Positions 23,945 through 43,444 of a DNA stretch of 64,000 bases are shown here, in pieces. The notes beneath the pieces are model-generated. The model worked only from the letters and a program-made list of their open reading frames with translations, made no database searches and was not told the origin of the DNA. The position numbers were made by a program, and so were the translations under genes. Every line of letters begins with the position of its first letter. Position 1 is the first letter of the stretch. The DNA is from Loktanella sp. (GTDB lineage Bacteria > Pseudomonadota > Alphaproteobacteria > Rhodobacterales > Rhodobacteraceae): positions 124,001 through 188,000 of the forward strand of contig JAFPBO010000051.1 of assembly GCA_017390475.1 (NCBI GenBank), written 5' to 3'.

Positions 23945-24223
23945 ATGCGGATCAAGAAACTGAAAGGGCCGCGCGCGGTGACTTTGCCGGACGGATCGGT
24001 GATGACCCGTGCCGATCTGCCGGACAAGGCCACCAAACGCTGGGTCGCGTCGCGCAAGGCGGCGGTGGTACGGGCCGTAACCCATGGCCTGATCAACCGC
24101 GCCGAAGCGCTGGAAACCTACGCGCTGTCAGAGGAAGAATTTACCGCCTGGGAACAGGCGGTTCAAAATCATGGCGAGGCTGCCCTGAAAGCCACTTCTG
24201 TGCAGAAATACAGACAACCTTGA
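23945..24223 (+). CDS. sciP: DUF1153 protein, SciP-like CtrA inhibitor
   Basis: A 92-residue helix-turn-helix protein. The core LPDGSVMTRADLPDKATKRW and then KAAVVRAVTHGLINRAEALE matches DUF1153, the family of Caulobacter SciP, which binds CtrA and blocks its recruitment of RNA polymerase. GGAAAGGGG lies 8 bp before the ATG. It sits 89 bp upstream of ctrA, an arrangement seen in Rhodobacterales. Here it is intact although its partner is cut. Confidence 0.85.
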   Translation: MRIKKLKGPRAVTLPDGSVMTRADLPDKATKRWVASRKAAVVRAVTHGLINRAEALETYALSEEEFTAWEQAVQNHGEAALKATSVQKYRQP

Positions 24224-24312: not shown

Positions 24313-25014
24313 ATGCGCGTCCTGCTGGTCGAAGATGACCCGACAACAGCCAAAAGCATTCAGTTGATGCTGACCCATGCCAATCTGAACGTCTATATCA
24401 CTGATCTGGGTGAGGAAGGCATCGATCTGGCGAAACTATATGATTACGATCTGATCCTGCTGGACCTGAACCTGCCCGACATGAACGGGCATGAGGTGTT
24501 GCGCCAGCTACGGCTCAGCCGGATTGACACGCCGATCCTGGTGCTGACCGGTGACGACGACACCGAAAGCAAATTGAAAAGCTTTGGTTTCGGTGCCGAT
24601 GATTACCTGACCAAACCGTTCCACCGCGAAGAACTGGTCGCACGCATCCATGCGATCGTCCGGCGGTCAAAAGGCCATGCGCAATCTGTCATCCGCACCG
24701 GGCAGGTGGCCGTCAATCTGGATGCCAAAACGGTCGAGGTGGCGGGCAGTCCGGTGCATCTGACAGGCAAGGAATATCAGATGTTGGAACTGCTGTCGCT
24801 GCGCAAAGGCACGACGCTGACCAAGGAAATGTTCCTGAACCACCTTTATTGCACTATAATAGCTTTGTTTTGTTGGGCAAGAAAAAAGCGTTTCAATTTG
24901 TGTTTCAAGGTTCGCTCTTTGACCCCCTTGCGTTCTGCGCCTCTTTCGCGCGGGCTTTTTGCTCGGCAGACCCCGAATAAAGCCGCGCCATCGCCTCTGA
25001 TGAATGGCCGGTGA
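24313..25014 (+). pseudogene. ctrA: ctrA, cut by the prophage; chimeric 233-residue ORF
   Basis: Residues 1-179 match CtrA closely: acidic pocket VEDD, phospho-acceptor Asp51 in [27 protein letters not shown], and [20 protein letters not shown]. The match stops at MFLNHLY (codon ending 24849). Normal CtrA continues with GGMDEPELKIIDVFICKL, the recognition helix, then the wing. Here the frame continues into phage DNA with 54 unrelated residues starting [13 protein letters not shown] and antisense to the integrase end. The receiver should still accept phosphate but DNA binding should be lost. GGAG precedes the ATG. The rest of ctrA should lie beyond 64,000. Confidence 0.93.
24831..24850. other. 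Left attachment junction (attL) within ctrA
   Basis: CtrA coding identity ends at the TAT codon 24847-24849, and phage sequence follows directly. The attachment core must end here or within the preceding ctrA bases. The exact core length needs the right junction, which is outside the window. Confidence 0.75.
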
Positions 25015-25924
25015 TCGACATTACGTGTTCGCGCGTCATGCCCGGCAAGCTGGCAATCTCTGACGCAGCCGTGTGCCGCAAACAGTGAATATCCCAAGCC
25101 TCTGCGCCGATCTTGCGGCGGACACTCATGAAGTCGCGCCATGCCAAATTGTAGCCAAGTTTTCGCCCGTTATTCTGGCTGACAATGTAAGGGCCAATGC
25201 GCGGGGCATCCGCTAAGGCCTTGGCCAGATCGGCTGTAAGCGGAATGCTGACACGCTTGTCGGTTTTCTGTTGCTGGACGCTGATGCCGTCCGGCCCGAT
25301 ATGGTCCCACTGCATCATTAGCACATCGCCAATCCGTTGCCCGGTGGCGATCAGCATTTCAAACAGCAGCAGCGTTCGGGGATCTGCTGCCTTGCGGAAC
25401 TTGGCGATCTTGTCGGCGGGCCATGGTTCACGCTTTGGGCGATTACCCTTTAGCTTGTCAACCTTGTGCGCGGGGTTGCCATTGGCCTTTTTGATCCAAT
25501 CGATGTTGATTGCATATTCCATCAGAACGGATAGCGCGCCAACCTTTCGGCTGGCATCGGTTGGAATGTCTGCCAATGAATCCCGCATCTCGATCACGTG
25601 AACCCTTCGGATCGTTGCCGGATCAATGCTGCCCATCGTTTCCTCAAAGTAAGTGAAGTGACGGCGGTATGATTTCTGCGTGTTCAGTGCCAGCTTGGCC
25701 CACTTGTGGCTGGCAAGGTAGTGCGCAATCAGCTTTTTAACGGTGCGGGTAGGGGCCGCTAGGTTGCCTTTCATCAGGCGCGCGTATTCAACAGCAAAAT
25801 CAGCCGTGCCAGGTTCGCACATCATCCTGATCGGCTTTGCCCCACGGCGGCAGAAATACAGATACCCCTTGCGTCCTTTTGGGTAGACATATGCTGGTAA
25901 GTCGCGTTTCACCTGCGCCCCCAT
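24905..25924 (-). CDS. int: Tyrosine recombinase (phage integrase)
   Basis: A 339-residue site-specific recombinase. The catalytic residues are visible: Arg in [12 protein letters not shown], Lys in [25 protein letters not shown] (His-x-x-Arg), GHSS and the Tyr in [11 protein letters not shown]. The N-terminal part holds the SAM-like core-binding domain. It lies next to attL and reads toward ctrA. It overlaps the small gene upstream by 16 nt, which may be an excision factor. Confidence 0.95.
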
Positions 25925-26094
25925 GTCACTAGATCGATCGGTTGGGTTTCTGTTGCCGTCATATCATCACGCTTTGCTTCCCCGAATTTCAATTCGATTG
26001 TGCTGCCGTCGATACGCGCAGACAGCACCACCTTGCCCGCCGCCTCACTAGCGCGCAGCATCTTTTCTAGGCGCTGGTCAATCGGCGCTGGCAT
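25909..26094 (-). CDS. Small protein upstream of integrase
   Basis: A 61-residue protein (MPAPIDQRLEKMLRASEAAG, then KVVLSARIDGSTIELKFG). A GGGGGTG ribosome site precedes it. It overlaps the integrase start by 16 nt, so the two are coupled. The predicted helix followed by a beta hairpin is not a recognised excisionase fold, but size and position allow a directionality factor. Function unknown. Confidence 0.65.
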   Translation of the reverse strand: MPAPIDQRLEKMLRASEAAGKVVLSARIDGSTIELKFGEAKRDDMTATETQPIDLVTWGRR

Positions 26095-26149
26095 GGCTAC
26101 ACCCCCGCCGCTGGCGCGGGTAGCAGGCGCGGGGTGTAGGTGATGGCGG

Positions 26150-26767
26150 TCATGGCTTGGCATCCACAGCAGATTTATCCCACGCAAACCACCTCGAAAT
26201 GTAATCGACTGCATCGCTGCAAATTTGTGGCGGTGGTTGATCGTCTGTCCCATTTAGTCGCGGGGGCATTACACCAAGTTCGGAATATAAATTACCAACG
26301 CTTTGATACGGGAAAACATCTGTTCCTAAATCGGGTCGCAAATAGTGAAACTGGCTTTTGCGATTTTCAGGGATCGGATGCTTAACGCTGTATGCGGGGA
26401 AAAACCTTCCCAATCCTGCGCTATCATAAGGCGTTGTAAAAGGTAGGTCATTTTTTAAAAGCCAATCTTCGAACGGTGCCTCGACACTTTCGCGCATTTT
26501 GGCGGTATATGTGGCGTCGTGTTCTGCGCACCAATCAAGACCAAACCTCTTGAGGTATTTATACAAACTCCACAGCCGATCTAAGGGGTCTCGCACGACC
26601 CCAACCTTGCGCCATCTATCATATCCGTGTGGAACGCCATCCGCCTCCATATGCCGGTACAAAAGCATCGAATTTGGATATTCATCAGCGATAGCGCGCT
26701 TTAGTGATCGGGTTCCGGTTCTTGGGACCAAAATCACAACCGTTTTGATTTCTGGAATTAATATCAT
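26150..26767 (-). CDS. Sulfotransferase-like protein
   Basis: A 205-residue protein with the two PAPS-binding signatures of sulfotransferases: VPRTGTRSLKRAI near residue 16 (5'-phosphosulfate loop) and VVRDPLDRLWSLYKYLKRFG (3'-phosphate site). Such an enzyme would transfer sulfate to a glycan or other acceptor. It stands between the integrase pair and the small-gene operon, with ATGA coupling to the micro-ORF upstream. It is probably a cargo gene of the lysogen or modifies a host surface. The acceptor is unknown. Confidence 0.72.
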   Translation of the reverse strand: MILIPEIKTVVILVPRTGTRSLKRAIADEYPNSMLLYRHMEADGVPHGYDRWRKVGVVRDPLDRLWSLYKYLKRFGLDWCAEHDATYTAKMRESVEAPFEDWLLKNDLPFTTPYDSAGLGRFFPAYSVKHPIPENRKSQFHYLRPDLGTDVFPYQSVGNLYSELGVMPPRLNGTDDQPPPQICSDAVDYISRWFAWDKSAVDAKP

Positions 26768-26817
26768 TCCCGCCCCTCCGCCCACATCGCCACGCGGTCA
26801 TAGTCGCGGCGGGTCAT
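26764..26817 (-). CDS. 17-residue micro-ORF in leftward operon
   Basis: MTRRDYDRVAMWAEGRE. It is linked by ATGA overlaps at both ends (to 26814 and to 26767), which is the main support. It shares the start MTRRD with the next upstream gene. It may be a true microprotein or only a coupling device. Confidence 0.35.
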   Translation of the reverse strand: MTRRDYDRVAMWAEGRE

Positions 26818-27017
26818 TGTCCAGCCTCCCGTATTTCGCGCGTTTGACGCAGAATTTTGGCCGTTCGCATGGCGTGAAACGTGTGCGGTGGTGGAGTGCA
26901 TCCGGGGCATGGATCGTATTCGCATTTCACGGCAACTGTGCTTTTCGGCGGATACGACATGCCGACCATTACACGGCCACGGCCCATGCAGATCAGGCAA
27001 TCATCGCGGCGGGTCAT
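26814..27017 (-). CDS. Small zinc-ribbon-like protein
   Basis: A 67-residue protein with cysteine pairs CLIC and CPGC (MTRRDDCLICMGRGR and KCEYDPCPGCTPPP), as in DnaJ-type or rubredoxin-like zinc ribbons. It is joined by ATGA overlaps to both neighbours. Probably an early phage protein of unknown role. Confidence 0.6.
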   Translation of the reverse strand: MTRRDDCLICMGRGRVMVGMSYPPKSTVAVKCEYDPCPGCTPPPHTFHAMRTAKILRQTREIREAGQ

Positions 27018-27817
27018 GGCTGGGCCTCGATAGCGGCACGGAATACGTTGGGGAAATTCATGGCATCAACTTTGTTGACCCTGCCGTCTGCCCGCTTTGC
27101 AACGCTTGGTATGTTGGCATCTAACCAAGCATCAATTATTTGCCAGCTTACAACTTCGCTTGTTGGGTCGATGAACAGAACCTTTTGACCATCGACTGTC
27201 GCAGTTGTGAGGCTGATGAACACTGGCTTGCCGCCGAACGTGCCGACAGTGGCACCAAAGCCACTGCTGTGCGAAACCCAATTGCGCCCTCCGCGATAGT
27301 TTTGCCAAAGGCACATAGTCTCAAAGCTGTTCGCCTCAACGACGCCTACAACATCCGCCAGAAACGCCTTAACTTCGTCGCTTGCTAGTTTAACGTCAGC
27401 CAGCGGGGCGGCGGGAGTGATATTGAGCGTCGAAAGGACGCTAGCACTGCGGTGTTCATAACAAGCTGCCATAACTTGTTCTTTTGTAGCTTTGGTGTTG
27501 GGCTTGACTATAAAATAACCTTTGGTCCCGCCATGAATTAGGTAAAAAGCGCCCCAGCCGTTAAACTCCCACTCTACTATGTAGGATACTCCATCAAAAT
27601 GCGCTGCGTAGCACAGTGGTTCGATTTCATACCGTTCTCCGTAGGAAACCCAGTCAAGCCCCTTCACAGCCACCACGGGCGCTGCTGCGCGGGTGTTCCA
27701 GACTTGCCGGTTCGGTGCTGATGTCCCACAGTCTTGGCACTCAACAGCGCCAGTCCGCATCACGTCCTCAATTTGGCTGCTCCAACAAAGCGGGCATGGC
27801 TTAAGTGCGTCATTCAT
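27014..27817 (-). CDS. Lar-like zinc ribbon fused to a larger domain
   Basis: A 267-residue protein starting MNDALKPCPLCWSSQ and continuing VECQDCGTSAPNRQVWNTRA. This is the two CxxC arrangement and WNTR ending of the Lar restriction-alleviation family. The remaining 210 or so residues (from about residue 55) have no recognised domain; GFGATVGTFGGKPVFISL suggests a beta-rich fold. A true Lar protein is about 60-90 residues, so this is a fusion or an unrelated user of the ribbon. Confidence 0.6.
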   Translation of the reverse strand: MNDALKPCPLCWSSQIEDVMRTGAVECQDCGTSAPNRQVWNTRAAAPVVAVKGLDWVSYGERYEIEPLCYAAHFDGVSYIVEWEFNGWGAFYLIHGGTKGYFIVKPNTKATKEQVMAACYEHRSASVLSTLNITPAAPLADVKLASDEVKAFLADVVGVVEANSFETMCLWQNYRGGRNWVSHSSGFGATVGTFGGKPVFISLTTATVDGQKVLFIDPTSEVVSWQIIDAWLDANIPSVAKRADGRVNKVDAMNFPNVFRAAIEAQP

Positions 27818-28094
27818 CTGCTTTCTCCTGTGCGATAGCCGCGCGGATCGTCTCTTTCGCCCGCTGATGTTCTGCGTTTGTGAATAGGCTGCTGTCCAGA
27901 TGTGCAAGCGCAGTCACCAGCGCCGCGCGGGCAGCGTTGCGCTCAAGTCCCATTGCCATGGCTTGCTGATACCACTGCTTTGCTTCGGCGCGCGCTGCGT
28001 CACGTTTCATCTCAGTCTCAACCAGCTTAGCGCGCAGATCGGCTATAATGTCCTGCGCTCTAGCAAGGTTGTCCGTCATCATGTCAGGTGTCAT
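27810..28094 (-). CDS. Helical early phage protein
   Basis: A 94-residue protein, almost entirely alpha helix (IIADLRAKLVETEMKRDAAR, rich in Ala, Glu, Arg), probably a coiled coil. Start MTPDMMTDNLARAQD at 28094, overlapping the upstream gene by 4 nt. Function unknown. Confidence 0.6.
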   Translation of the reverse strand: MTPDMMTDNLARAQDIIADLRAKLVETEMKRDAARAEAKQWYQQAMAMGLERNAARAALVTALAHLDSSLFTNAEHQRAKETIRAAIAQEKADE

Positions 28095-28678
28095 GCAGCA
28101 TCCTCGCCAAGCAATGATGAAGCCAGACCGCGAACTTCTGGCGCAAATGGCCGGTCCTTGCTCAGACTGCCAAGGTGCGCGTATCCGGCACCAACCGCCA
28201 AGGCATTCGCAATCATCCAAGCGACTTGCGGGGCTAGTTCGGGCGGCAAGTCAATTTCCCAGCGGCTATCCAGTTGCAGCGAAACCAACCCGTTGCGCTC
28301 TGTCATGCGCATCTTTGGGATTTCTCGATTTTCGACAACAACGGTGTGGTAATGCGTCTGGCATCCCTTCATGGCCTCTACGGCATCCCTGACGCGCAGT
28401 GCTTCGGCTTCTTCTGGTGTTGGGTTTATTTCACTCATTCCGACCTCCATATCGCCACGATCAGCAGCTTGATTAAAATTGCGTCCAGCATCAGGCAGCA
28501 GATCGCCGTTGCTGTCCTGGCGTTTACAGACGCGCCCTGTCGGCCAGTAGCAGCATCCGTTGGTGTCCCGCAGTGTGCCGTCCGGGTCTATGCGCGCGAT
28601 GGTGGCCGTCCATTTTCCGCCGCGTGTCGGGTAGGTCTGTCCGATAACAAAGGCGGGTGTATGTGTGTCTTTCATCAT
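28091..28678 (-). CDS. Early phage protein of unknown function
   Basis: A 195-residue protein. The first part (FVIGQTYPTRGGKWTATIAR, then NGCCYWPTGRV) is like short beta-sheet domains in many phage early genes; the second half (ERNGLVSLQLDSRWEIDLPP) looks separate. The start is MM at 28678 or 28675, joined by ATGA to the neighbours. Function unknown. Confidence 0.6.
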   Translation of the reverse strand: MMKDTHTPAFVIGQTYPTRGGKWTATIARIDPDGTLRDTNGCCYWPTGRVCKRQDSNGDLLPDAGRNFNQAADRGDMEVGMSEINPTPEEAEALRVRDAVEAMKGCQTHYHTVVVENREIPKMRMTERNGLVSLQLDSRWEIDLPPELAPQVAWMIANALAVGAGYAHLGSLSKDRPFAPEVRGLASSLLGEDAA

Positions 28679-28794
28679 ACGCCCCCGACAAAACCGCCAC
28701 GCGCGCGGTGTGGGTGCGGTATCTGCGCTTGGCGTTCGGCCTCGCAGCGGGCGGCTGCTGCGATCAGGGCTGCGGCGGCGGGGGATTGCGTCAT
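28675..28794 (-). CDS. 39-residue microprotein
   Basis: MTQSPAAAALIAAAARCEAE followed by a basic tail. ATGA overlaps on both sides support translation. It has one short helix and no recognisable function. Confidence 0.45.
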   Translation of the reverse strand: MTQSPAAAALIAAAARCEAERQAQIPHPHRARGGFVGGV

Positions 28795-28946
28795 GTTTTG
28801 CCCCCCATAAGCCAAACACCCATCCCAAGACCTAAAATCATGCCAAAGGTTAAGTGCGGCGAAGCCATGCCAACCCCTAAACCCGCCCCGTATCCCAAAA
28901 GAATGCCAACGGTTCCCCCTAAAAATACCATCATGCTTTTGCTCAT
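28791..28946 (-). CDS. 51-residue glycine-rich membrane protein
   Basis: Two hydrophobic segments rich in glycine (MMVFLGGTVGILLGYGAGLG and LTFGMILGLGMGVWLM) suggest a hairpin in the inner membrane. It is coupled by ATGA to both neighbours. It may act in superinfection exclusion, which is only a guess from size and place. Confidence 0.5.
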   Translation of the reverse strand: MSKSMMVFLGGTVGILLGYGAGLGVGMASPHLTFGMILGLGMGVWLMGGKT

Positions 28947-29155
28947 CTCCCATACCCCCAGACACACAGCAGCGCGCCCGCCACGACAAAGGCGGTGAAC
29001 CAGAACGCGCGGCGGCGTTGCTTGCGCTGGAAGATGCTGTATTCGGTGTCTAGCTGCACCGGCTCCCACTCGCTGCAACCGTCTGGGTAGCCCATGTCCC
29101 TGAGTTTGAGAAATTGCGCTGTCGTCAACGCGGGGCGGATGTTCTGGTGTATCAT
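28943..29155 (-). CDS. Small membrane-anchored protein
   Basis: A 70-residue protein with a soluble N-terminus (TTAQFLKLRDMGYPDGCSEW), a basic stretch RKQRRRAF and one C-terminal membrane segment (WFTAFVVAGALLCVWGYG). ATGA overlaps on both sides. Function unknown. Confidence 0.55.
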   Translation of the reverse strand: MIHQNIRPALTTAQFLKLRDMGYPDGCSEWEPVQLDTEYSIFQRKQRRRAFWFTAFVVAGALLCVWGYGR

Positions 29156-29640
29156 GACAGCACCTCGCGCACATGAATGATGCTGGGCCACATCAGCTTA
29201 GAGCAGGCGTCCTGCGCTTCTTGCAGGCTGTCGTATGCCTCGCAGCCTCCAACGATCCAGAACTCACGCAGCACGACAGGCGCGGGCTTGATGCGGTAGG
29301 CGTAATCTTTTATCCACCCGCCGTGCATTTTTTCTATCCATCTGGCATTAACCCAGACTTGGATATCCTTCCCTGCCATTTGCGCTTTTACCAACGCGCC
29401 CACTTGGGCATCACTCATGTCTTTCCACAGCACAGGCGTGTCGGGCTTGGCGTCGGATGCGCGGGATACAATGCGGAAAAGCGATACGTTGTAGTAGGAA
29501 ACGGGGCATCCATGAATGCAGTTGCGGTCATCCAGCCTGTATTCTTTTCCGACCACAAAATCAGAACCGGATTTGATGCACTCCACCACATCCCCCGGCT
29601 GCACGTTCAGTTCTTTCAGTGTCCGTCCTTCAGTCATCAC
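29152..29640 (-). CDS. Early phage protein of unknown function
   Basis: A 162-residue protein. The first third (LNVQPGDVVECIKSGSDFVV) looks like a small SH3-like or beta-barrel fold, and the middle has WKDMSDAQVGALVKAQMAGK. There is no family I can name. ATGA overlaps with both neighbours. Confidence 0.6.
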   Translation of the reverse strand: MMTEGRTLKELNVQPGDVVECIKSGSDFVVGKEYRLDDRNCIHGCPVSYYNVSLFRIVSRASDAKPDTPVLWKDMSDAQVGALVKAQMAGKDIQVWVNARWIEKMHGGWIKDYAYRIKPAPVVLREFWIVGGCEAYDSLQEAQDACSKLMWPSIIHVREVLS

Positions 29641-29864
29641 GCAAACTCCGCGTCTTGTGCCAGCGCATGAACCGCAATCAGCAGGTCAGCGGGCAGTGTT
29701 CGGGGGTCGCAATCGACGCCCAATATCGTCAGGCTGTGAATTGCGATACTATCGGGGTTGACTTCGGTTTCGGTTATCGTGCCGGGGCCGTAGTCATAGC
29801 GGTCAGATTCGGCCGTGAAGGTGACGTTGACCTCCTCGCCGATGTGTTGGGCTGTTGCGGTCAT
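29637..29864 (-). CDS. Small acidic protein
   Basis: A 75-residue acidic protein (MTATAQHIGEEVNVTFTAES, then DRYDYGPGTITETEVNPDS). The negative charge and small beta-type fold are features often found in phage anti-host or anti-defence proteins, but nothing specific is seen. ATGA coupled. Confidence 0.5.
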   Translation of the reverse strand: MTATAQHIGEEVNVTFTAESDRYDYGPGTITETEVNPDSIAIHSLTILGVDCDPRTLPADLLIAVHALAQDAEFA

Positions 29865-30316
29865 CGCGCGGCCCTCGCCTTTTTGTGAAGCTCAACGTGG
29901 TGCTTTCTGCAAAGCCACCAAACGTTCAGGGGCTTGCTGTAGTCCTCGTGGTGCGCGTCAACTTTTGTTTCGCCACAAACTTGGCAAGGCTGTCTGATTA
30001 AAGCGCCTGATTGTATGGCGCTTGCTACTTTCCAGCGGGCCTCGTGCCTGTATCGCAGCTCACCTTCCCGATATTTCTTTGCATTGCGCGCTTTTCTCGC
30101 TTTGACGCTAGGAATAGTTTTGTAAGTCTGTTCGTATTCCCTGTGGTATTCACTAGGCATACGAGTCCCGCTGACTGATTTACCTTCCGCCCTACGCTTA
30201 GCGCGGTTTTCTAGGTTCTGAGCCTTTCTGCACGGCTTGCAGACCCAGTATCCTTTTTTGAGTTGCGCCTGCGTTGGTTCGCAATCAGCACTGCACTTCC
30301 AGCATTTTTCAGTCAT
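29861..30316 (-). CDS. HNH-type zinc-binding endonuclease-like protein
   Basis: A 151-residue protein with an N-terminal Cys pair region (CWKCSADCEPTQAQL ... CKPCRKAQ) and a C-terminal CQVCGETKVDAHHEDYSKPL followed by WWLCRKHHVELH. This is the degenerate HNH/zinc pattern found in phage endonuclease-like proteins. A basic helix joins the two. It may bind or cut DNA. Confidence 0.65.
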   Translation of the reverse strand: MTEKCWKCSADCEPTQAQLKKGYWVCKPCRKAQNLENRAKRRAEGKSVSGTRMPSEYHREYEQTYKTIPSVKARKARNAKKYREGELRYRHEARWKVASAIQSGALIRQPCQVCGETKVDAHHEDYSKPLNVWWLCRKHHVELHKKARAAR

Positions 30317-30668
30317 GAGATTTCACCTTGGCGATTGCGGCGTCTAGCGCGTCCAATGCTTCGCTGCATGTTGTGCGAACCCCAAGTGATGGGATGTGCC
30401 AAATGCCAGTAAAGGCCCTGCCGCCGGTGCGTGTCATTTCAGACTGCATCACCGCCCCAAGAACCTGCGCCGCCTCCAGCAGTTCCGCGCTGTCCGTGGC
30501 GCGGGTGTTCCATGGATCGATGAATTGAGGAACGTGCCACCATGTTTGACCAGACAAAAGGCAATTGGCTGACGGGTGCTGAACCTTTTTAATATCCCGC
30601 GTGATGGGGCTTCCCAACACTTCCAAATTGCCACCACAGAAAGGGCATGGCTTGAGTGCATCCGTCAT
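30309..30668 (-). CDS. Lar-like zinc ribbon protein
   Basis: A 119-residue protein starting MTDALKPCPFCGGNLEVLG and ending its first part in DPWNTRA, the Lar restriction-alleviation pattern, though only the first CxxC is clear (a single C in PSANCLLSG follows). The second half is a helical domain (ELLEAAQVLGAVMQSEM). It is a relative of the N-terminus of the 27014-27817 product. Confidence 0.6.
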   Translation of the reverse strand: MTDALKPCPFCGGNLEVLGSPITRDIKKVQHPSANCLLSGQTWWHVPQFIDPWNTRATDSAELLEAAQVLGAVMQSEMTRTGGRAFTGIWHIPSLGVRTTCSEALDALDAAIAKVKSHD

Positions 30669-30835
30669 ACCCGCACCTCCCGATCCCAAGCGCGGCGGGG
30701 CATAGCTGCGCGCAATGTCGGGCGCGGTATCGACAGATCATGTGCGCCGAGCGTTGCGCGGATGCGTTGCTGCGGCGTCATCTGCGCAAGCGTCAGGCTG
30801 ATGCCGTCATTGCCGATGTAAAATCTTCCGTTCAT
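30665..30835 (-). CDS. 56-residue protein of unknown function
   Basis: MNGRFYIGNDGISLTLAQMT, then a basic tail (RPTLRAAMPRRAWDREVRV). The start could also be ATG 30847. It is ATGA-coupled to the Lar-like gene. Confidence 0.45.
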   Translation of the reverse strand: MNGRFYIGNDGISLTLAQMTPQQRIRATLGAHDLSIPRPTLRAAMPRRAWDREVRV

Positions 30836-30880
30836 GTCAGCCTCCATTGTGCTGTGTGTTGGGGGTGTCGGGGGCGCGGG

Positions 30881-31177
30881 TCATGGGGCGCTTTCCCGCT
30901 GCATAATCAGTTCTGCGATCTGGTCTGGCCAAACCCACCAGACGGGAAATGCGCCTTCATCTTCGGCCCGCTGAAAGTCGCCACCATTGCGGACACGACG
31001 CCCCTTTTGGTCGAAGCATAGGGCGGTGAAGTGTTCGCCCCGCCGGCCCTTCGCAGGGCCTTGATGCTCTGTGTTGTGATACTTCGGATGCGAGGTCAGG
31101 CACCGTGTCGCGCGGACAACCCACTCCCCGTGGCTTGCAAACGACTGGCCATCTATGGCTACGAAGGCGCGGGTCAT
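30881..31177 (-). CDS. Small protein of unknown function
   Basis: A 98-residue protein with many aromatic and charged residues (HGEWVVRATRCLTSHPKYHN, FPVWWVWPDQIAELIM). No motif is recognised. It overlaps the upstream gene by ATGA. Confidence 0.5.
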   Translation of the reverse strand: MTRAFVAIDGQSFASHGEWVVRATRCLTSHPKYHNTEHQGPAKGRRGEHFTALCFDQKGRRVRNGGDFQRAEDEGAFPVWWVWPDQIAELIMQRESAP

Positions 31178-31464
31178 GGGGTGACGCCTTTGGCCTTGGC
31201 GATGGCGGCGCGGTTGGCGTGGACAGCATCTGTCACGCGCTGATTGTTTTTCAGCGCAGGCACCGATTGCAAAAGCGTGTTTGCTTCTTCTAGCGCAGCC
31301 AGCAGATCATCAGCGGCTTCGCGGGCTGGCGTGGCAAGCAGGTATTCGGCTGCATCGTCAGCGAAATGGGCATCCCAGTTCCGCCACTTCCCCGAAACGC
31401 GATCACCCAATTTGGCTTCTTGCCAAGCCCATATCCGGTCCTGCGTGTGTGCTGTAACGCTCAT
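31174..31464 (-). CDS. Helical early phage protein
   Basis: A 96-residue alpha-helical protein (MSVTAHTQDRIWAWQEAKLG, then a helix-rich C-terminus ending AAIAKAKGVTP). Coupled by ATGA to 31461-31622 upstream. Function unknown. Confidence 0.5.
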   Translation of the reverse strand: MSVTAHTQDRIWAWQEAKLGDRVSGKWRNWDAHFADDAAEYLLATPAREAADDLLAALEEANTLLQSVPALKNNQRVTDAVHANRAAIAKAKGVTP

Positions 31465-31622
31465 GACGCCACCTGCGCGATCCGATAGCTGCGCCAGCCT
31501 TTTGTGGCGTGATACTGAACTTCGCGGCCATTCATCTTTTTCGTGATTAAGATGCGTTTGCCATATTCGCCCTGCCGTTTTGGCGAAGATGCTTTGCCCT
31601 TATTGTTTCGTGTGATTGCCAT
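31461..31622 (-). CDS. First gene of leftward operon, 53-residue basic protein
   Basis: MAITRNNKGKASSPKRQGEY and then GKRILITKKMNGREVQYHAT, strongly basic, suggesting nucleic-acid binding. It is the promoter-proximal gene of the leftward operon. Its stop overlaps the next start (TCATGA). Its place recalls early regulators such as N of lambdoid phages, but no sequence similarity supports that. Confidence 0.55.
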   Translation of the reverse strand: MAITRNNKGKASSPKRQGEYGKRILITKKMNGREVQYHATKGWRSYRIAQVAS

Positions 31623-31727
31623 TGTGTCGTTCCCTCTGTTGGCGAGGGGGCGATGCCTTGATCTGGGTCAATGTTTCGACTGGCAGATCGTGGTGTAGGC
31701 AGGGCGTCCCTCGTGTGTATGAGGGTG

Positions 31728-31756
31728 AGACTATCCACCAAATGTGGATCACGCAA
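31728..31756 (-). promoter_or_regulatory. Candidate leftward early promoter
   Basis: On the minus strand TTGCGT (31756-31751) and TAGTCT (31733-31728) are 17 bp apart, with the operator-like 13-mer at 31735-31747 in the spacer. It would drive the leftward operon from 31622. The -10 box is weak. Confidence 0.4.
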
Positions 31757-31821
31757 GGATAAAATCACATATTGTGGAAAATGATTGATACGGGTATGAA
31801 TCCACTAGCCACAACTTGCGG
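31735..31821. promoter_or_regulatory. Left operator cluster, three 13-bp sites
   Basis: CCACCAAATGTGG (31735-31747), TCACATATTGTGG (31765-31777) and CCACAACTTGCGG (31809-31821) fit the shared inverted-repeat pattern CCACA-N3-TGTGG. The middle one is identical to the site at 32256-32268. They lie between the leftward operon and the 57-residue gene at 31860, as expected for repressor or Cro binding. Confidence 0.65.
31772..31800 (+). promoter_or_regulatory. Candidate rightward promoter for the 31860 gene
   Basis: TTGTGG (31772-31777) and TATGAA (31795-31800) are separated by 17 bp. The -35 box overlaps the operator-like site at 31765-31777, so a repressor would block it. Confidence 0.4.
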
Positions 31822-31859
31822 GGTGTTGCTAGTATGTTCTCATCACAAAGGAGGGTAGT

Positions 31860-32033
31860 ATGCAGCAGGTAGATCAACGGCTGGACCGGATGATTCAGAT
31901 CGCCAATGAAACAGGCTTTTCGCTAGACGCTGTGGTGTCTGTAATGGGACGCTGCGATCAAAGCACCTTTGACGCGCTGTCAGATAAACCGTCACGCCTG
32001 CCAAGATATATGAAGTCTAGCGTCAGGCCGTAA
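31860..32033 (+). CDS. 57-residue protein overlapping the repressor 3' end
   Basis: MQQVDQRLDRMIQIANETGF, then SLDAVVSVMGRCDQSTFDAL. An excellent AAAGGAGG lies 6 bp before the ATG, and operators and a candidate promoter precede it. The last 76 bp overlap the repressor gene on the other strand, so transcription here would run antisense to the repressor message. Role unknown; possibly an antirepressor. Confidence 0.55.
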   Translation: MQQVDQRLDRMIQIANETGFSLDAVVSVMGRCDQSTFDALSDKPSRLPRYMKSSVRP

Positions 32034-32218
32034 AGCGCGCAAAGCCGTTCTGCCGACTCTACGGTGATACGGCGGATGCCGCCTTCCCAATTGTTCCACT
32101 GTGTAACGGTGAAGCCGTGCTTCACTGCCCACTGCTTTTGGTTCAGGTCAGAGAATCCTTCACGGATCGCTACAAGCCTGTCTGCTATATCTTTGTGGGG
32201 GGCGTCTTGATTCGTCAT
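31958..32218 (-). CDS. CI-like phage repressor (helix-turn-helix)
   Basis: An 86-residue helix-turn-helix protein. The recognition region is NQKQWAVKHGFTVTQWNNWE followed by GGIRRITVESAERLCALYGL, a typical XRE-type fold. There is no C-terminal cleavage domain, so it is not a LexA-like CI. The start at 32218 (MTNQDAPHKD) is preferred because operators lie between it and the Cro-like gene; the open frame runs upstream through them. No Shine-Dalgarno sequence is seen. Confidence 0.75.
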   Translation of the reverse strand: MTNQDAPHKDIADRLVAIREGFSDLNQKQWAVKHGFTVTQWNNWEGGIRRITVESAERLCALYGLTLDFIYLGRRDGLSDSASKVL

Positions 32219-32255
32219 AAGTGTGGATTTTACGAAAACATCGTTTTCATGCAAT

Positions 32256-32293
32256 TCACATATTGTGGTCTTGCAACGGTCCACAAAATGTGG
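32256..32293. promoter_or_regulatory. Right operator pair between repressor and Cro-like genes
   Basis: TCACATATTGTGG (32256-32268) and CCACAAAATGTGG (32281-32293) are 13-bp sites 25 bp apart, the second a perfect CCACA-N3-TGTGG repeat. They lie in the 88-bp gap between the divergent start codons. TTGCAA (32271-32276) with TTCAGT (32294-32299) is a possible rightward promoter that would give a nearly leaderless message. Confidence 0.7.
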
Positions 32294-32306
32294 TTCAGTC
32301 TGGTCC

Positions 32307-32573
32307 ATGATCACATCCCTAGAAGTAGCAGACGCCATTGGGCGCAAAAAGCTGTCAGACGCTCTAGGCGTCGGAACAACAGCCGTTAGCAACGCTGTGG
32401 TGCGGGGCTGGTTTCCTGCAACATGGTTCATAGTCGTTTCCGATCTGGCGAAGGAAAAGGGCTTAGAATGTCCGCCTTGCTTGTTCAAAATGGCTGTCGA
32501 TAAATCACAAAGTGTGGATTGCCCCGCGTCTATTCAAGGGCCGGAATCTACTCAGTCGGGCGGTGTCGTATGA
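32307..32573 (+). CDS. Cro-like/helix-turn-helix regulator
   Basis: An 88-residue protein. MITSLEVADAIGRKKLSDAL followed by GVGTTAVSNAVVRGWFPATW fits a Cro/YdaS-type helix-turn-helix. Divergent from the repressor with the operator pair between them, it should start the lytic program. The stop overlaps the methyltransferase start (ATGA). A sixth operator-like site lies inside its 3' end. Confidence 0.75.
   Translation: MITSLEVADAIGRKKLSDALGVGTTAVSNAVVRGWFPATWFIVVSDLAKEKGLECPPCLFKMAVDKSQSVDCPASIQGPESTQSGGVV
32505..32517. promoter_or_regulatory. Operator-like 13-mer inside cro-like gene
   Basis: TCACAAAGTGTGG fits the same pattern as the other five sites. It lies 53 bp before the methyltransferase start and could act on transcription of the rightward operon or as a distant looping site. 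Confidence 0.5.
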
Positions 32574-33676
32574 ACGCCCACTTTGGACATAACGAAATGA
32601 CTGCGCGTCTTGGCTTGCTTGCCGATGATGCAAAGAAGGCGCTGGTCCGTGTTGCTGCTGGTGAATCCGATACGATCGAAGGCTGGCTGGCCTATGGGTC
32701 TGCGCTGAATGAGGGGCGATCTTTATACCCAGATAAAGAGGGTGACAGGGCGTTTGGCGAATGGGTTGATGTGTCGCAACTTGCGACACATGCCGATGGC
32801 AAGCTGATAACTCGCGATGATCGCGCCGCAGCGATGTGGGCCGCTGCAAACCCAGATCAGTTTGCAGAAGCCCGCGAAGCGGGCAATGCGCGCACGGTGC
32901 GCGGTATCCATGCTAAATGGCAGGAAATAGACGATCAGCGCAAGCGCGAGGAAGCCGCCAAATTGGCAGAGCAAGCTCGCGCGAAAGCAGAAGCCGCAGC
33001 GCAAGAGGAATACGAAAACCGTAAGCGTTCAGAGGAGGCGCGCGGCGACGAAGAGCGACAAGAATACGCACGCAAGGCTGATGATGCCGAAAACGAGCGC
33101 GTTCAGTATGAAAACGAAACGAGGGCGTGGCAGGAAACAGCGGAAGCGCCAGAGCGTCCAAAGCTAGATCAAAAGAAAGCACACGTTGCCAACAACAGCG
33201 GCAATAACGAATGGTATACGCCAGCACCGTTTGTTGAGGCTGCGCGGGCTGTCATGGGCGGGTTTGATCTCGACCCTGCATCATCCGAAATCGCCAACCG
33301 CACAGTGCAGGCCGACCGCATATTCACCCAAGACGATGATGGCCTAAAGCAAGATTGGCCCATTGGCCGGGTATGGATGAACCCGCCCTACGCACAACCG
33401 CTGATGGGGCAGTTTGCAGACAAGTTTGCCGCCGAAATCCGTAAAGGTTCTGAGGGTGTCGTGCTGGTGAACAATGCAACAGAGACCGCATGGTTTCAAA
33501 CGATTGCAGCGGAATGTTCAGCAATTTGTTTTCCCAAGACACGCATCAGGTTCCTTGATCCTGATGGCAACCCCGGCGCGCCATTGCAGGGGCAGGCAAT
33601 CATTTATTGCGGGCCTGATGTTGACGCCTTCAAGGAAGCCTTTGGCGCTTTCGGTTTGGTGGTGTCTCATGGGTAA
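32570..33676 (+). CDS. Phage DNA N6-adenine methyltransferase with helical N-terminus
   Basis: A 368-residue protein. Residues about 210-360 are the phage Dam domain: NNEWYTPAPFVEAARAVMGG, FDLDPASSEIANRTVQADR and the catalytic VWMNPPYAQPL (NPPY). Residues 1-80 form a helical domain like those in plasmid or phage partition-type proteins (RLGLLADDAKKALVRVAAGE), and 110-200 are a long charged coiled coil. It may protect phage DNA from restriction. The recognition site is unknown. Confidence 0.85.
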   Translation: MNAHFGHNEMTARLGLLADDAKKALVRVAAGESDTIEGWLAYGSALNEGRSLYPDKEGDRAFGEWVDVSQLATHADGKLITRDDRAAAMWAAANPDQFAEAREAGNARTVRGIHAKWQEIDDQRKREEAAKLAEQARAKAEAAAQEEYENRKRSEEARGDEERQEYARKADDAENERVQYENETRAWQETAEAPERPKLDQKKAHVANNSGNNEWYTPAPFVEAARAVMGGFDLDPASSEIANRTVQADRIFTQDDDGLKQDWPIGRVWMNPPYAQPLMGQFADKFAAEIRKGSEGVVLVNNATETAWFQTIAAECSAICFPKTRIRFLDPDGNPGAPLQGQAIIYCGPDVDAFKEAFGAFGLVVSHG

Positions 33677-34214
33677 GTTTGAACAGGCTCTTGCCTTTGG
33701 GCAGATGGGCGAAAGCGCCATTTCAAAATGGTTGCAGTCGCGCGGCCATGCCGTGTTCCCTGCATATCAGGTTGAACACCAGACAGGCAAAGGGCCGCAG
33801 CTTTTCGCGGCGTCTGGCGATCTGGTATTACCGGACTTGCTGGCATTTCGCGCGGGCGAAGTCCGTTGGTTTGAAGCAAAGCACAAGACTTGCTTCACAT
33901 GGCATCGCATTTCTAGGCAGTGGACCACCGGTATCGACCTGCGTCACTACGGCGAATATCAGGAAGTTGCAGAACGCACATCCCTACCAGTTTGGTTGCT
34001 TTTCTGGCATCCAAAGGAGCAACCATCAGATAACGACCTTGCGTTCGGCTGTCCGGCTAAATGTCCGACTGGATTGTTTGGTGGCGATATCGCTGAGTTG
34101 ACGCAATGCGAAAACCACCGCTCAGACAGGCATGGCCGCACTGGCATGGTTTACTGGGCGCATAGCAGCCTTAAGCGCATCGCAGCGGACATATCCCAAC
34201 AGGTGACGGCATGA
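33669..34214 (+). CDS. PD-(D/E)XK nuclease-like protein
   Basis: A 181-residue protein. The pattern SGDLVLPDLLAFRAGEVRWF followed by EAKHKTCFTWHR looks like the Asp ... Glu-x-Lys core of PD-(D/E)XK nucleases. Start ATG 33669, overlapping the methyltransferase end by 8 nt. It could act in phage recombination or in pairing with the methyltransferase. Cleavage activity is inferred only. Confidence 0.6.
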   Translation: MGKFEQALAFGQMGESAISKWLQSRGHAVFPAYQVEHQTGKGPQLFAASGDLVLPDLLAFRAGEVRWFEAKHKTCFTWHRISRQWTTGIDLRHYGEYQEVAERTSLPVWLLFWHPKEQPSDNDLAFGCPAKCPTGLFGGDIAELTQCENHRSDRHGRTGMVYWAHSSLKRIAADISQQVTA

Positions 34215-34423
34215 CCGCGCTGACCGTCAAACAGCACACCGTCCTAGCGCACCTATCCGATGGCGACTGGCGTCAGGGCTATGAACTGGCCTCTGCTGGC
34301 GTTCTGGGCGTCCTACAGCGGCGTGAACTTATCCGCGACGATATGAGCGTCAAGGCCATGGAAGAACGCCTGTGGACCATCACACCGGATGGGCTGGCTG
34401 CGCTTGAAAGGGCCGGACAATGA
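34211..34423 (+). CDS. Small winged-helix protein
   Basis: A 70-residue protein; KQHTVLAHLSDGDWRQGYEL followed by VLQRRELIRDD and LWTITPDGLAALERAG fits a winged helix of the MarR type. ATGA coupling on both sides. It is probably a DNA-binding early regulator. Confidence 0.6.
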   Translation: MTALTVKQHTVLAHLSDGDWRQGYELASAGVLGVLQRRELIRDDMSVKAMEERLWTITPDGLAALERAGQ

Positions 34424-34887
34424 CCGCCCAAGAGACACCGACGCGCGGCGGTATATCCGCGCCCGAAGCCTCCCCAACTGCTGGCTTGTCGCCCTCCCTC
34501 GGCAAGCCAGCATTTTTGGGTGAGCGCACAATCGTTTTACCGTGGCCCCCCGCCGCCTTATCGCCAAACGCTAAGCGTAGGGGCCACTGGCGGGCATATG
34601 CGCCTGTCACCAAGGCCTACCGCCACGACTGCGCTGTAGAGGCCCTAGCGCAAGGCCTGCGGGCCTGTCCTGACCAGCCGTTGCACCTGTCGCTGACGTT
34701 CTGCCCGCCTGACAACCGCCGCCGCGATCTGGACGGGATGCTTGGCGCGTTCAAGGCGGGTTTAGACGCCCTGTCTGACGTGATGGGTGTCGATGACAGC
34801 CGGTGGGCTTTGTCTATCCGCAAGGGGGCAAAGGCCATGCGCGGGCTTGTTCTGGTGTCTATCACAGGAGGCGCAGATGCAGATTGA
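34420..34887 (+). CDS. rusA: RusA-family Holliday junction resolvase
   Basis: A 155-residue protein. LPWPPAALSPNAKRRGHW is the usual RusA start, and the acidic catalytic region is RRRDLDGMLGAFKAGLDALS followed by DVMGVDDSRW. RusA proteins cut Holliday junctions made during phage replication and recombination. The first 35 residues are not part of the fold, so a downstream start is possible. It overlaps the next gene by 11 nt. Confidence 0.85.
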   Translation: MTAQETPTRGGISAPEASPTAGLSPSLGKPAFLGERTIVLPWPPAALSPNAKRRGHWRAYAPVTKAYRHDCAVEALAQGLRACPDQPLHLSLTFCPPDNRRRDLDGMLGAFKAGLDALSDVMGVDDSRWALSIRKGAKAMRGLVLVSITGGADAD

Positions 34888-35233
34888 TATTGAGGCCATT
34901 GCTAAAATGCGGACGGACGGCCTGTCATACGACGACATAAAGGCACGGACAGGGCTTAGCCAGTCGTCAGTAGGCAACATGGTGCGGCTTGCAAAAAACG
35001 CTGGCCTGCTGGCTGAACGCGAAGTGCTGCATGACCGGAAATCCTTGGCCGAACGCGCTTGGATGGCATACGGCGTCCGGCTTGGGAAAACGACAGATGC
35101 CCTACGCGCACTTGACCGCGACCAGTTCGAATGGCTGGCGCGGGAAGCGGGCATGGTTGGCTGCGAAAGCATCGCCGAATACCTCACCGAACTGGTTCGC
35201 GATGCTCATGCGGAAGCGACAGAAAGCCTATGA
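34877..35233 (+). CDS. Helix-turn-helix early protein
   Basis: A 118-residue protein. SYDDIKARTGLSQSSVGNMV is a clear helix-turn-helix. The C-terminal half is helical. The start at 34877 (MQIDIEAIAKM) has GGAGG 7 bp upstream. It probably regulates or joins DNA replication. Confidence 0.65.
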   Translation: MQIDIEAIAKMRTDGLSYDDIKARTGLSQSSVGNMVRLAKNAGLLAEREVLHDRKSLAERAWMAYGVRLGKTTDALRALDRDQFEWLAREAGMVGCESIAEYLTELVRDAHAEATESL

Positions 35234-35352
35234 TTCGCTTGCATAATTCCAGCCATAATGCTAAACGAAACGGGCGGGAAGGCATTACCAGTGCCACCCC
35301 CGCCCTAAGACATATACAAACCTGTATGAGAGGTTCGACCAATGCCCTTTGA
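35230..35352 (+). CDS. 40-residue early ORF
   Basis: MIRLHNSSHNAKRNGREGIT, basic. Supported only by the ATGA overlap with the gene before it and by overlap with the next small ORF. Role unknown. Confidence 0.35.
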   Translation: MIRLHNSSHNAKRNGREGITSATPALRHIQTCMRGSTNAL

Positions 35353-35425
35353 GCATCAATATGGCGATTCCGCCGTATTTATCAATCCCTATTCTGACAA
35401 AGCTGACGCCACGGTGGCGATATGA
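35342..35425 (+). CDS. 27-residue early ORF
   Basis: MPFEHQYGDSAVFINPYSDK followed by ADATVAI. Its TGA overlaps the ATG of the initiator-like gene, so it may couple translation. Role unknown. Confidence 0.35.
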   Translation: MPFEHQYGDSAVFINPYSDKADATVAI

Positions 35426-35883
35426 GCGCCCGTGCAATCATCTGGGCGCGAGATCAGCGCCTGCCAGCCCCGCAAAAGGTGGTGTTGCTGATACTGGCAT
35501 CGCACCACAATCCCAAGGACGACAAGTGCTTTCCATCGCAGGAATTGCTTGCATGGGAAACTGGGTTATCCCGTCGCGCAGTCCAGATTGCGCTAAAAAG
35601 CCTTGTCAAGTCAAAGCATGTTGAAGTCGAAAAAAAGCGCCACAAAGGCCAGTGGTCGTCGTGCTTTTACCGCCTTCACATGGGAGAACAAACCGCGAAA
35701 AAAGCCACTAACCATGCGCATGAGGTGCGCACGGACCATAGTAATAAAACGGCGCACGGTGAAAAATCCCACCATGCGCATGAGGTGCGCACTAAAGGGT
35801 ATATATATAATACAGGCGAAGAAGACCCAGCCAAGATATGCGATAAACCTTTGCTGCGTGTTGTGTCTGGCGGTGCAGCATGA
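35422..35883 (+). CDS. Replication initiator-like helix-turn-helix protein
   Basis: A 153-residue protein. Residues about 15-75 (PAPQKVVLLILASHHNPKDD ... AVQIALKSLVKSKHVEVEKK) form the winged helix-turn-helix found at the N-terminus of phage replication initiators such as lambda O and DnaT-like proteins. Its middle is encoded by two 22-bp direct repeats. It directly precedes helicase and primase genes, and its stop overlaps the helicase start. Confidence 0.7.
   Translation: MSARAIIWARDQRLPAPQKVVLLILASHHNPKDDKCFPSQELLAWETGLSRRAVQIALKSLVKSKHVEVEKKRHKGQWSSCFYRLHMGEQTAKKATNHAHEVRTDHSNKTAHGEKSHHAHEVRTKGYIYNTGEEDPAKICDKPLLRVVSGGAA
35711..35816. other. Candidate phage replication origin inside the initiator gene
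   Basis: Two copies of ACCATGCGCATGAGGTGCGC (plus AC) lie at 35711-35732 and 35771-35792, exactly 60 bp apart; each holds two TGCGCA palindromes. Immediately after the second is the AT-rich GGGTATATATATAATACA (35798-35815). Iterons next to an AT-rich stretch inside the initiator gene is the layout of lambda ori within gene O. Confidence 0.6.
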
Positions 35884-37373: not shown

Positions 37374-37983
37374 TATCACTGGAATGAAGTTTGGTCGGCT
37401 GACCGTAGTCGAGAAAGCTAAACGCCCTGCGCACGTCAAAAGTCAAATGGCATACTGGCGATGTGTCTGCGAATGCGGCGGCGAAGCCATCCACACTAAG
37501 GGTAATCTTGCGAAGGGCAGCGTGAAGTCGTGTGGATGCCTTCGCAGGGAAGTCGCGGGGCGTGAGCCTATCCACGGGCTTTGGGAAGCGCTCTCATATC
37601 GCAAGTGGGTAGCGATGATCAGCCGCTGCTATCATCCGTCTCAGCAAAGCTACCCGATATACGGCGGTCGCGGCATATCTGTCTGCGAAGAATGGCGGAA
37701 TGATCCTGCAGCCTTTGACGCTTGGGCTACAGCAAACGGTCTGTCCGAAGGGCTGCACTTAGATCGGATAGACACGGACGGCGACTACTCGCCCGAAAAT
37801 TGCCGGTTCGTGACGCCGAAGCAGAACGCAAATAACCGCAGAAGCAACCGCATTGTGATGGTGCAAGGCAGTGAAATGACATTGGCCGCAGCTGCAGCGA
37901 GGTTTGGTGTCAAAGCCAGCGTTGCGGCGAAGCGCATCAAGCGTGGATGGACCGAGGAAGAAGCGTTTGAGGTGTCGAAATGA
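37363..37983 (+). CDS. HNH/AP2-type mobile endonuclease-like protein
   Basis: A 206-residue protein. The N-terminal part (MKFGRLTVVEKAKR, YWRCVCECGG, SVKSCGCLRRE) is the AP2-like zinc DNA-binding module, and GLHLDRIDTDGDYSPENCRF with QNANNRRSN is the HNH-like part seen in many freestanding phage endonucleases. It sits between helicase and primase with overlaps at both ends, typical for a homing-type gene that has settled in. Confidence 0.75.
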   Translation: MLLDITGMKFGRLTVVEKAKRPAHVKSQMAYWRCVCECGGEAIHTKGNLAKGSVKSCGCLRREVAGREPIHGLWEALSYRKWVAMISRCYHPSQQSYPIYGGRGISVCEEWRNDPAAFDAWATANGLSEGLHLDRIDTDGDYSPENCRFVTPKQNANNRRSNRIVMVQGSEMTLAAAAARFGVKASVAAKRIKRGWTEEEAFEVSK

Positions 37984-38888: not shown

Positions 38889-38891
38889 AAT

Positions 38892-39311: not shown

Positions 39312-39313
39312 AA

Positions 39314-39979: not shown

Positions 39980-39990
39980 GAGGGGCCGAA

Positions 39991-40194
39991 ATGTTTGTAT
40001 CCGTGAAATTTAACCCAAACCATGACCGCACTTACACCTATGCTTACGCAGGGGAAAAGGAGTTGACTAAAGGCGATCTTGTCTTAGTGGAAACTGCCGA
40101 GGGCAAAAAGATTGTCACCGTTGAGAACTGCAATGTCGATAAGCCGTCATTCGCGTGCAAGCCGATTTATGCGGTGTGTGAGGTGGTGGCATGA
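39991..40194 (+). CDS. Small beta-rich protein
   Basis: A 67-residue protein (MFVSVKFNPNHDRTYTYAYA, then GDLVLVETAEGKKIVTVENC). The pattern resembles the small N-terminal barrel of PriA-like proteins and is common in phages near recombinase genes. Start ATG 39991 with GAGAGGGG upstream. Role unknown. Confidence 0.6.
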   Translation: MFVSVKFNPNHDRTYTYAYAGEKELTKGDLVLVETAEGKKIVTVENCNVDKPSFACKPIYAVCEVVA

Positions 40195-41688: not shown

Positions 41689-41689
41689 C

Positions 41690-42465: not shown

Positions 42466-42488
42466 CCCCCAGCAACAGGACAGGCACA

Positions 42489-43372: not shown

Positions 43373-43444
43373 CGATGGGGGCGAAATATGCCAATTTCTT
43401 AGGGCAGTCGAAGTGCGTCTAGATTTTCGACTGTAAGATATTCC

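What the first reader, a model, noticed from the sequence alone, without database searches (positions are those of the whole stretch)
24313..25014. A complete-looking prophage is inserted inside ctrA, removing its DNA-recognition half
Seen: the ORF matches CtrA to residue 179 (MFLNHLY) and then becomes unrelated phage-encoded residues next to an integrase. Known: CtrA is an OmpR-type regulator, and the lost part is the recognition helix and wing. In Rhodobacterales CtrA is usually not essential and promotes motility and gene-transfer-agent functions. Inferred: this phage uses a master regulator as its attachment site, so lysogens are functionally CtrA-null. I know of no described phage that uses ctrA this way, although I could not search.
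Basis: partly seen in the sequence, partly recalled or inferred. Interest (0 to 1): 0.92.

Follow-up and report, generated by a model that had tools for sequence, protein, structure and literature searches.

The report
Prophage splitting ctrA, a recurrent target
A complete-looking temperate phage has inserted itself into the middle of ctrA, a master regulator gene of the bacterium, and phages with related integrases have done the same at the same few codons in other genera, so they probably switch the regulator off for as long as they stay.

Summary
Confirmed and extended. The window ORF is CtrA up to codon 179; the missing 58 codons lie 41.6 kb further on the same contig, beyond the window. 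A 20-base direct repeat (one mismatch) flanks a complete-looking tailed-phage prophage. No second CtrA was found (next best 32%). It is not a one-off: of 13 genome loci (12 genomes; Paracoccus, Salipiger, Pseudooceanicola, the window's genus) with an integrase of this clade, 12 border a ctrA cut within the same few codons; the 13th sits in another gene of a genome whose ctrA is already occupied. The integrases form one supported clade; in 9 of 9 genomes checked with more distant integrases ctrA is unbroken. The phages share few other genes. Precedent: Paracoccus phages Pkon1 and PD15 were reported in 2019 to insert in an 'OmpR family' regulator gene (passages of PMC6536676), whose main text does not name ctrA. 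Lysogens are predicted CtrA-null, yet 12 of 12 keep ChpT and a GTA gene, the latter broken in two. Benefit to the phage and reversibility are untested.

The parts
24313..24849 (+). 5' part of ctrA (codons 1-179: receiver domain, linker and start of the winged-helix domain)
   Evidence: 94% identity to relative L009 over 1-180; Pfam Response_reg full, Trans_reg_C 1-35 of 77
24830..24849 (+). attL core, TGTTCCTGAACCACCTTTAT; its partner attR is outside the window at L038 2459-2478 (would be 66459-66478)
   Evidence: direct comparison; 19 of 20 bases identical
24850..25014 (+). phage-derived tail of the fusion ORF (54 codons and stop); the fusions of the six other lysogens read stop at 179-185 aa with unrelated tails
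24850..64000 (.). prophage, part inside the window; it runs on to about 66458, 41.6 kb in all
24905..25924 (-). tyrosine integrase of the ctrA-site clade
   Evidence: Pfam Phage_integrase 57.9 bits; PHROG integrase E 3.2e-47; tree
25909..26253 (-). small ORF overlapping the integrase start; candidate directionality factor, inferred from position only
31958..32488 (-). repressor-like HTH protein
   Evidence: PHROG transcriptional regulator E 1.1e-7; Pfam HTH_31 below cut-off
32519..33676 (+). Dam-type adenine methyltransferase domain protein
   Evidence: Pfam PF05869 66.1 bits
34420..34887 (+). RusA-like resolvase
   Evidence: PHROG E 3.7e-20
35880..37373 (+). phage DNA helicase
   Evidence: PHROG E 8e-82
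37980..38888 (+). phage primase
   Evidence: PHROG E 5.8e-67; Pfam Toprim_3
39314..39979 (+). Erf-like annealing protein
   Evidence: PHROG E 4e-40
43457..44257 (+). terminase small subunit / HNH
   Evidence: PHROG terminase small subunit E 3.5e-43, HNH families next
44740..46533 (+). terminase large subunit
   Evidence: PHROG E 4.7e-136, Pfam TerL domains
46545..47831 (+). portal
   Evidence: PHROG E 8.6e-107
47728..48651 (+). head maturation protease
   Evidence: PHROG E 7.4e-89
48536..49972 (+). major head protein
   Evidence: PHROG E 8.7e-75
54217..56706 (+). tail tape measure protein
   Evidence: PHROG E 8.4e-36
23945..24223 (+). small conserved gene upstream of ctrA, probably sciP (name recalled, no family search run)
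   Evidence: ORF; a similar gene beside ctrA in L050 was read by eye

Best explanation
A temperate tailed phage has integrated by site-specific recombination between its attP and an attB inside ctrA (codons ATG TTC CTG AAC CAY CTN TAT, residues 173-179). The insertion cuts CtrA before its recognition helix and wing, and nothing seen at the junction restores them, so the lysogen is predicted to make a receiver-containing stub and to lack CtrA activity while lysogenic. The integrase belongs to a clade whose members sit at this same spot in several Rhodobacterales genera, in phages that otherwise share few genes. Precise excision would rebuild an intact ctrA. Shown: the split, the direct repeats, the recurrence, the clade, no other CtrA found. 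Inferred: loss of function in the cell, and that excision still occurs.
For: Both ctrA halves and a 19-of-20 direct repeat flank 41.6 kb of phage DNA. Joining the two flanks in a script gives a 237-residue CtrA without an inner stop. 12 of 13 loci with this integrase clade border ctrA, whose 5' part ends at codons 176-181. The 3' half was found in 11 of 12 genomes, in 7 of them 10.5-49.9 kb away on the same contig. 17-row clade support 100/99; 9 of 9 genomes checked with more distant integrases have ctrA unbroken over residues 1-227 or more. Fusion tails of the 7 lysogens read differ, and by eye hold no replacement domain (Pfam run on the window one only). The next best CtrA-like match by E-value in the 12 genomes is 32-41% identical. 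The published attB of the induced phage Pkon1 fits these codons. Both halves of the window ctrA show purifying constraint: against the two nearest of six relatives compared, 5' part dN 0.03-0.035, dS 0.65-0.86, 3' part dN 0.009-0.019, dS 1.2-1.9; against the other four, dN 0.06-0.08 in both parts with dS 0.8 to saturated.
Against: One of 13 loci (S. thiooxidans L089) sits at the start of an rlmJ-like gene instead, so the site is preferred, not exclusive. In G696 the prophage lies the other way round, the integrase beside the 3' half. In G699 the halves are 1.09 Mb apart on opposite strands and in G807 no 3' half was found, so some insertions may have become irreversible. No expression, phenotype or excision data are at hand. 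The P. kondratievae host gene itself was not read; that it is ctrA is inferred from attB and integrase kinship.
Confidence: 0.9

Rival explanations
1. Reversible switch (active lysogeny): the phage excises under some conditions to restore ctrA and re-enters, so host and phage use the prophage as an on/off switch for the CtrA regulon, as with comK or hlb prophages.
For: Both halves are constrained in the window genome; ChpT and a GTA_TIM match are kept in 12 of 12 genomes; Pkon1 was induced from its host (passages of PMC6536676); the IMG/VR contig L101 carries an unsplit attP resembling ctrA codons 173-180.
Against: The same facts fit simple recent lysogeny. No read-level excision data. G807, G699 and perhaps the 10.5 kb remnant in G712 look stuck or decayed.
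Confidence: 0.25
2. Selected knock-out: losing CtrA helps the prophage, by silencing the host's gene transfer agents, whose release lyses cells, or by closing the door to phages that need CtrA.
For: GTA_TIM match in 12 of 12 lysogens; an R. capsulatus ctrA deletion is resistant to phage Jorvik (passages of PMC10589892); the CtrA phosphorelay controls the GTA cluster in R. capsulatus and flagella in D. shibae (passages of PMC4046655); one integrase clade keeps the target in phages that share few other genes.
Against: GTA genes are widespread in this order (abstract in the listing), so their presence is weak evidence; no set of non-lysogens was tested for enrichment. GTA_TIM is broken across frames in G685 and G807. 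Integrase clades can keep their attB without any benefit from the gene hit.
Confidence: 0.3
3. Neutral target: ctrA is simply a very conserved, dispensable gene in Rhodobacterales, a reliable landing site; the loss of CtrA is tolerated collateral damage.
For: CtrA has not been found essential in the Rhodobacterales strains examined (passages of PMC4046655); the core codon pattern is present in 28 of the 29 relative loci L009-L037 (L022 lacks it); the rlmJ-like second site has a similar core.
Against: Integrases often favour gene ends that are rebuilt (recalled; three tRNA-site phages in PMC6536676); this clade cuts inside the gene in the 12 ctrA cases.
Confidence: 0.45
4. Assembly artefact or chimera at 24849.
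For: A draft assembly of 56 contigs.
Against: A ctrA 5' part cut at the same place in 12 genomes, with the 3' half found in 11, and junctions read in seven.
Confidence: 0.01

Closest known systems
Paracoccus phage vB_PkoS_Pkon1 and prophage vB_PpaP_PD15 (PMC6536676)
   Same: Pkon1 integrase 57.9% identical to the window's and in the same clade; attB GTTTCTCAA(G/C)CAT disrupting an OmpR-family regulator gene; PD15, with an integrase reported 92.7% similar to Pkon1's, also in an OmpR-family gene
   Different: Published as an unnamed OmpR-family gene; 'ctrA' has no occurrence in that paper's main text. Apart from the integrase no ORF of the window prophage matched Pkon1 at E <= 1e-8 over half its length
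comK prophages of Listeria (recalled) and hlb-inserting Sa3 phages of Staphylococcus (abstracts in the listing)
   Same: Insertion inside a host gene with loss of its product; comK is also a regulator gene (recalled)
   Different: Reversible excision is described there, not shown here; hosts and integrases differ
HK022 prophage beside the tor genes of E. coli (abstract and headings of PMC6814406)
   Same: Lysogeny changes a host signal-transduction system
   Different: There by transcription from a phage promoter, here by cutting the response regulator gene
Phages regulated by CtrA, 'lytic deferment' (abstract and passages of PMC9437464), and phage Jorvik (passages of PMC10589892)
   Same: Alphaproteobacterial phages tied to CtrA
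   Different: They use or need CtrA; these split its gene. TTAA-N7-TTAA had 1 match in the window, at 6530, none in its prophage part (the last 2.5 kb of the prophage, in L038, was not scanned)

Membership tests
temperate tailed phage prophage | integrase, packaging, head and tail genes between direct repeats | tested here: met
   24 of 65 called ORFs were searched, and no lysis gene or excisionase was recognised among them
ctrA-site integrase clade (incl. Pkon1) | integrase clusters with the others and borders ctrA cut at codons 176-181 | tested here: met
CtrA ortholog (gene hit) | orthologous identity and position between mnmA/sciP-like genes and ligA | tested here: met
   94% to same-genus CtrA; the relative L009 matches the solved CtrA receiver 4qpj best; the 3' half is followed by an ORF read as ligA (neighbour names recalled)
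target-restoring integration (as in tRNA genes) | phage DNA rebuilds the interrupted gene end | tested here: not met
   tails of 7 lysogens read by eye, no wing or recognition helix; Pfam on the window fusion
active lysogeny / phage regulatory switch | regulated excision restores the gene without lysis | not testable with these tools
   needs reads or cultures
active lysogeny / phage regulatory switch | both gene halves remain intact and in frame for rejoining | tested here: met
   window genome only; joined frame 237 codons and stop

The most novel reading that the evidence does not exclude
A lineage of phage integrases has specialised on ctrA and spreads among unrelated phages because cutting ctrA pays: the lysogen stops making gene transfer agents and CtrA-dependent surface structures, which keeps the host from lysing itself and shuts out rival phages, and excision returns the regulator. 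Lysogeny would thus act as a reversible off-switch for the master regulator of swimming and gene transfer.
Probability: 0.2. Interest if true: 0.9.

Novelty: new member of a known kind. Interest (0 to 1): 0.66.

Why it matters
CtrA is a conserved alphaproteobacterial regulator; in this order it drives flagella and gene transfer agents. A phage integrase clade that repeatedly splits it gives natural ctrA disruptions in 12 genomes found here, may confound motility and GTA work on those strains (Salipiger bermudensis HTCC2601 among them), and makes the phage-versus-GTA conflict testable with existing isolates and an inducible phage (Pkon1).

Tried and rejected
Assembly error: rejected by recurrence. 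Second CtrA copy: none seen in the 12 lysogens (next best 32-41%). Phage-supplied replacement C-terminus: rejected, tails are short or unrelated. CtrA boxes in the prophage: no match of the strict pattern in the part inside the window. The first IMG/VR scan with the single integrase found nothing; a scan with a three-row alignment found 9 loci, six of them over 50% identical: L097 borders ctrA residues 86-179, L101 has an unsplit attP, and L096, L098, L099 and L100 end with their contig just past the integrase, so show no flank. Paper searches for an earlier description; only PMC6536676 came near, and no listing or passage seen named ctrA as a phage attachment site. Most subscription papers are not in that library. 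The ORF caller evidently missed the G685 integrase (no ORF shared with the window there, although one search finds one at 55%), so its shared-gene counts are lower bounds.

Full report
What is there. The window lies in contig C42 (124001-188000) of a genome of 4.13 Mb in 56 contigs. Its genus is not named here, but it shares a family with G127, which has the coordinates and contig length of Salipiger bermudensis AmN7-7, so it is one of the Rhodobacterales. The ORF at 24313 is CtrA through codon 179, then leaves the family; Pfam sees the receiver but only 35 of 77 positions of the DNA-binding domain. The intact relative L009 aligns along its length with a solved OmpR-family regulator, 1kgs; that the part beyond the cut is the recognition helix and wing is established knowledge of the fold. 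Searching the own genome with the missing part found it at C42:190473-190652, 88% identical to the relative, in an open frame of 76 aa, preceded by TGTTCCTGAACCATCTTTAT; the copy at the left end is TGTTCCTGAACCACCTTTAT. Between them lie 41.6 kb with integrase, a repressor-like gene, helicase, primase, both terminase subunits, portal, protease, major head and tape-measure genes. The prophage looks complete, though 24 of 65 called ORFs were searched and no excisionase or lysis gene was recognised among them.

Is ctrA really gone? The genome has 22 matches to the 179-residue query; the next best by E-value after ctrA itself is 32% identical. In the same genus a match was found in 40 of 40 genomes searched, this one included; in one, G026 (84% complete), ctrA itself is in two pieces with stops. 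The 29 relative loci fetched, L009-L037, gave alignments reaching residue 225 or 237. Both halves of the window ctrA show low dN and high dS against six relatives, so the break is recent or reversible.

Recurrence. The closest integrase in the phage collection is that of Paracoccus phage Pkon1 (57.9%), whose record marks its attachment site 'in OmpR-family transcriptional regulator gene'. A search of 394 genomes of the family gave matches in 51 at E <= 1e-40, of which only the window genome and G127 (53%) belong to this clade; G127's integrase abuts a cut ctrA. A scan of the GTDB contigs with a three-row alignment gave nine loci, eight over 50% identical: Paracoccus methylarcula, P. cavernae, Pseudooceanicola marinus, three Salipiger bermudensis strains and two copies in S. 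thiooxidans. The genus of G680 (10 of 125 genomes at E <= 1e-60, six of this clade) and that of G127 (4 of 20) added G696, G699, G712 and a partial G807 copy; the window's own genus has it in 1 of 56, and a draw from the order had matches at E <= 1e-75 in 6 of 390, three of them of this clade. With duplicates between calls removed this is 13 loci in 12 genomes. Eleven border the 5' part of ctrA, one (G696) the 3' part, and one (L089) the start of an rlmJ-like gene with a related core, in a genome whose ctrA is already taken. All 12 genomes hold a cut 5' part; the 3' half was found in 11: on the same contig 10.5-49.9 kb away in seven, on another contig in three (G680, G682, G684), 1.09 Mb away on the other strand in G699, and not at all in G807.

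Specificity. On a tree of 34 integrases the 12 ctrA-site rows (11 genomes and IMG/VR L097; the partial G807 copy was left out), Pkon1, the rlmJ-site copy and three other IMG/VR rows form one clade with 100/99 support. Nine genomes with more distant integrases (G189, G341, G665, G519, G686, G733, G760, G767, G768) have ctrA unbroken; the other genomes with distant integrases were not checked. Among eight phages or prophage regions, pairs share 0 to 5 ORFs out of 51-74 (12 in the G712 remnant); with Pkon1 and G813 the window prophage shares one, with G470 and G696 four. The junctions of seven lysogens, read by eye, place the exchange at or beside T(C/T)CT(C/G)AA. The fused proteins end at 179-185 aa in six of seven and at 233 aa in the window genome, with unrelated tails.

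Consequence. CtrA has not been found essential in the Rhodobacterales studied and controls flagella and gene transfer agents (passages of PMC4046655; of PMC12363192). In R. capsulatus a ctrA deletion also blocks phage Jorvik (passages of PMC10589892). All 12 lysogens still encode ChpT and a GTA_TIM match; GTA_TIM is split over frames in G685 and G807, which may be decay or sequencing error. I therefore predict CtrA-null lysogens with an otherwise kept pathway. Whether the disruption is selected, neutral or a reversible switch cannot be told from sequence; I put a neutral landing site first, selection second.

Prior knowledge. PMC6536676 (passages) reports that Pkon1 disrupts a putative OmpR regulator gene and that PD15 of P. 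pantotrophus J46, with an integrase 92.7% similar, also sits in an OmpR-family gene; the word ctrA does not occur in its main text. The present work points to ctrA as that gene through the clade, and shows the breadth and the codons. It is a new member of a known kind, gene-disrupting lysogeny, with an unusually important target.

Noticed in passing
L089 7000-7850 (S. thiooxidans, = G826:C18): A second phage with a ctrA-clade integrase sits at the start of an rlmJ-like gene (name recalled) whose core CAACACCTCTAC resembles the ctrA core, in a genome whose ctrA is already occupied: a likely secondary attB.
   Followed up: partly
G696:C1:2295252-2336455 (L136, L156, L181-L183): Prophage in inverted orientation: the integrase abuts the 3' half of ctrA; by eye its flanking arm resembles that of G712 read the other way.
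   Followed up: partly
G807:C1:3093954-3094944; G699:C1:1204599 and 2290712: G807 keeps ctrA codons 1-179 and a 135-aa integrase end, no 3' half found; in G699 the two ctrA halves are 1.09 Mb apart on opposite strands. Permanent ctrA loss may have followed lysogeny.
   Followed up: no
G685:C1:2016190-2017085; G807:C1:508636-509531: GTA_TIM gene broken across frames in two lysogens; decay after CtrA loss or sequencing error.
   Followed up: no
window 25909-26253 and the same place in relatives: A small ORF overlapping the integrase start; in 11 of 16 clade rows it ends in a D-x-V/I-x-W-like motif (the other five picks look out of frame); candidate directionality factor.
   Followed up: partly
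L038 2749-6995: ORFs read as ligA and recG (names recalled) follow the ctrA 3' half; the prophage separates them from the ctrA promoter, so polarity on a ligase gene is possible.
   Followed up: no
window 5670-6014: ChpT-type phosphotransferase domain (PF10090, 78.4 bits), of the same phosphorelay, lies 18 kb upstream of the broken ctrA.
   Followed up: no
L101 5390-5430: IMG/VR contig with an unsplit attP resembling ctrA codons 173-180 downstream of a ctrA-clade integrase: a phage not integrated in ctrA.
   Followed up: partly
G712:C44:123857-134309: Only 10.5 kb between the ctrA halves, with integrase and 11 other called ORFs: a remnant or a satellite.
   Followed up: partly
G026:C13:77326-77867: In one same-genus relative without this integrase ctrA is found in two pieces with stops: another broken ctrA or a sequencing error.
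   Followed up: no
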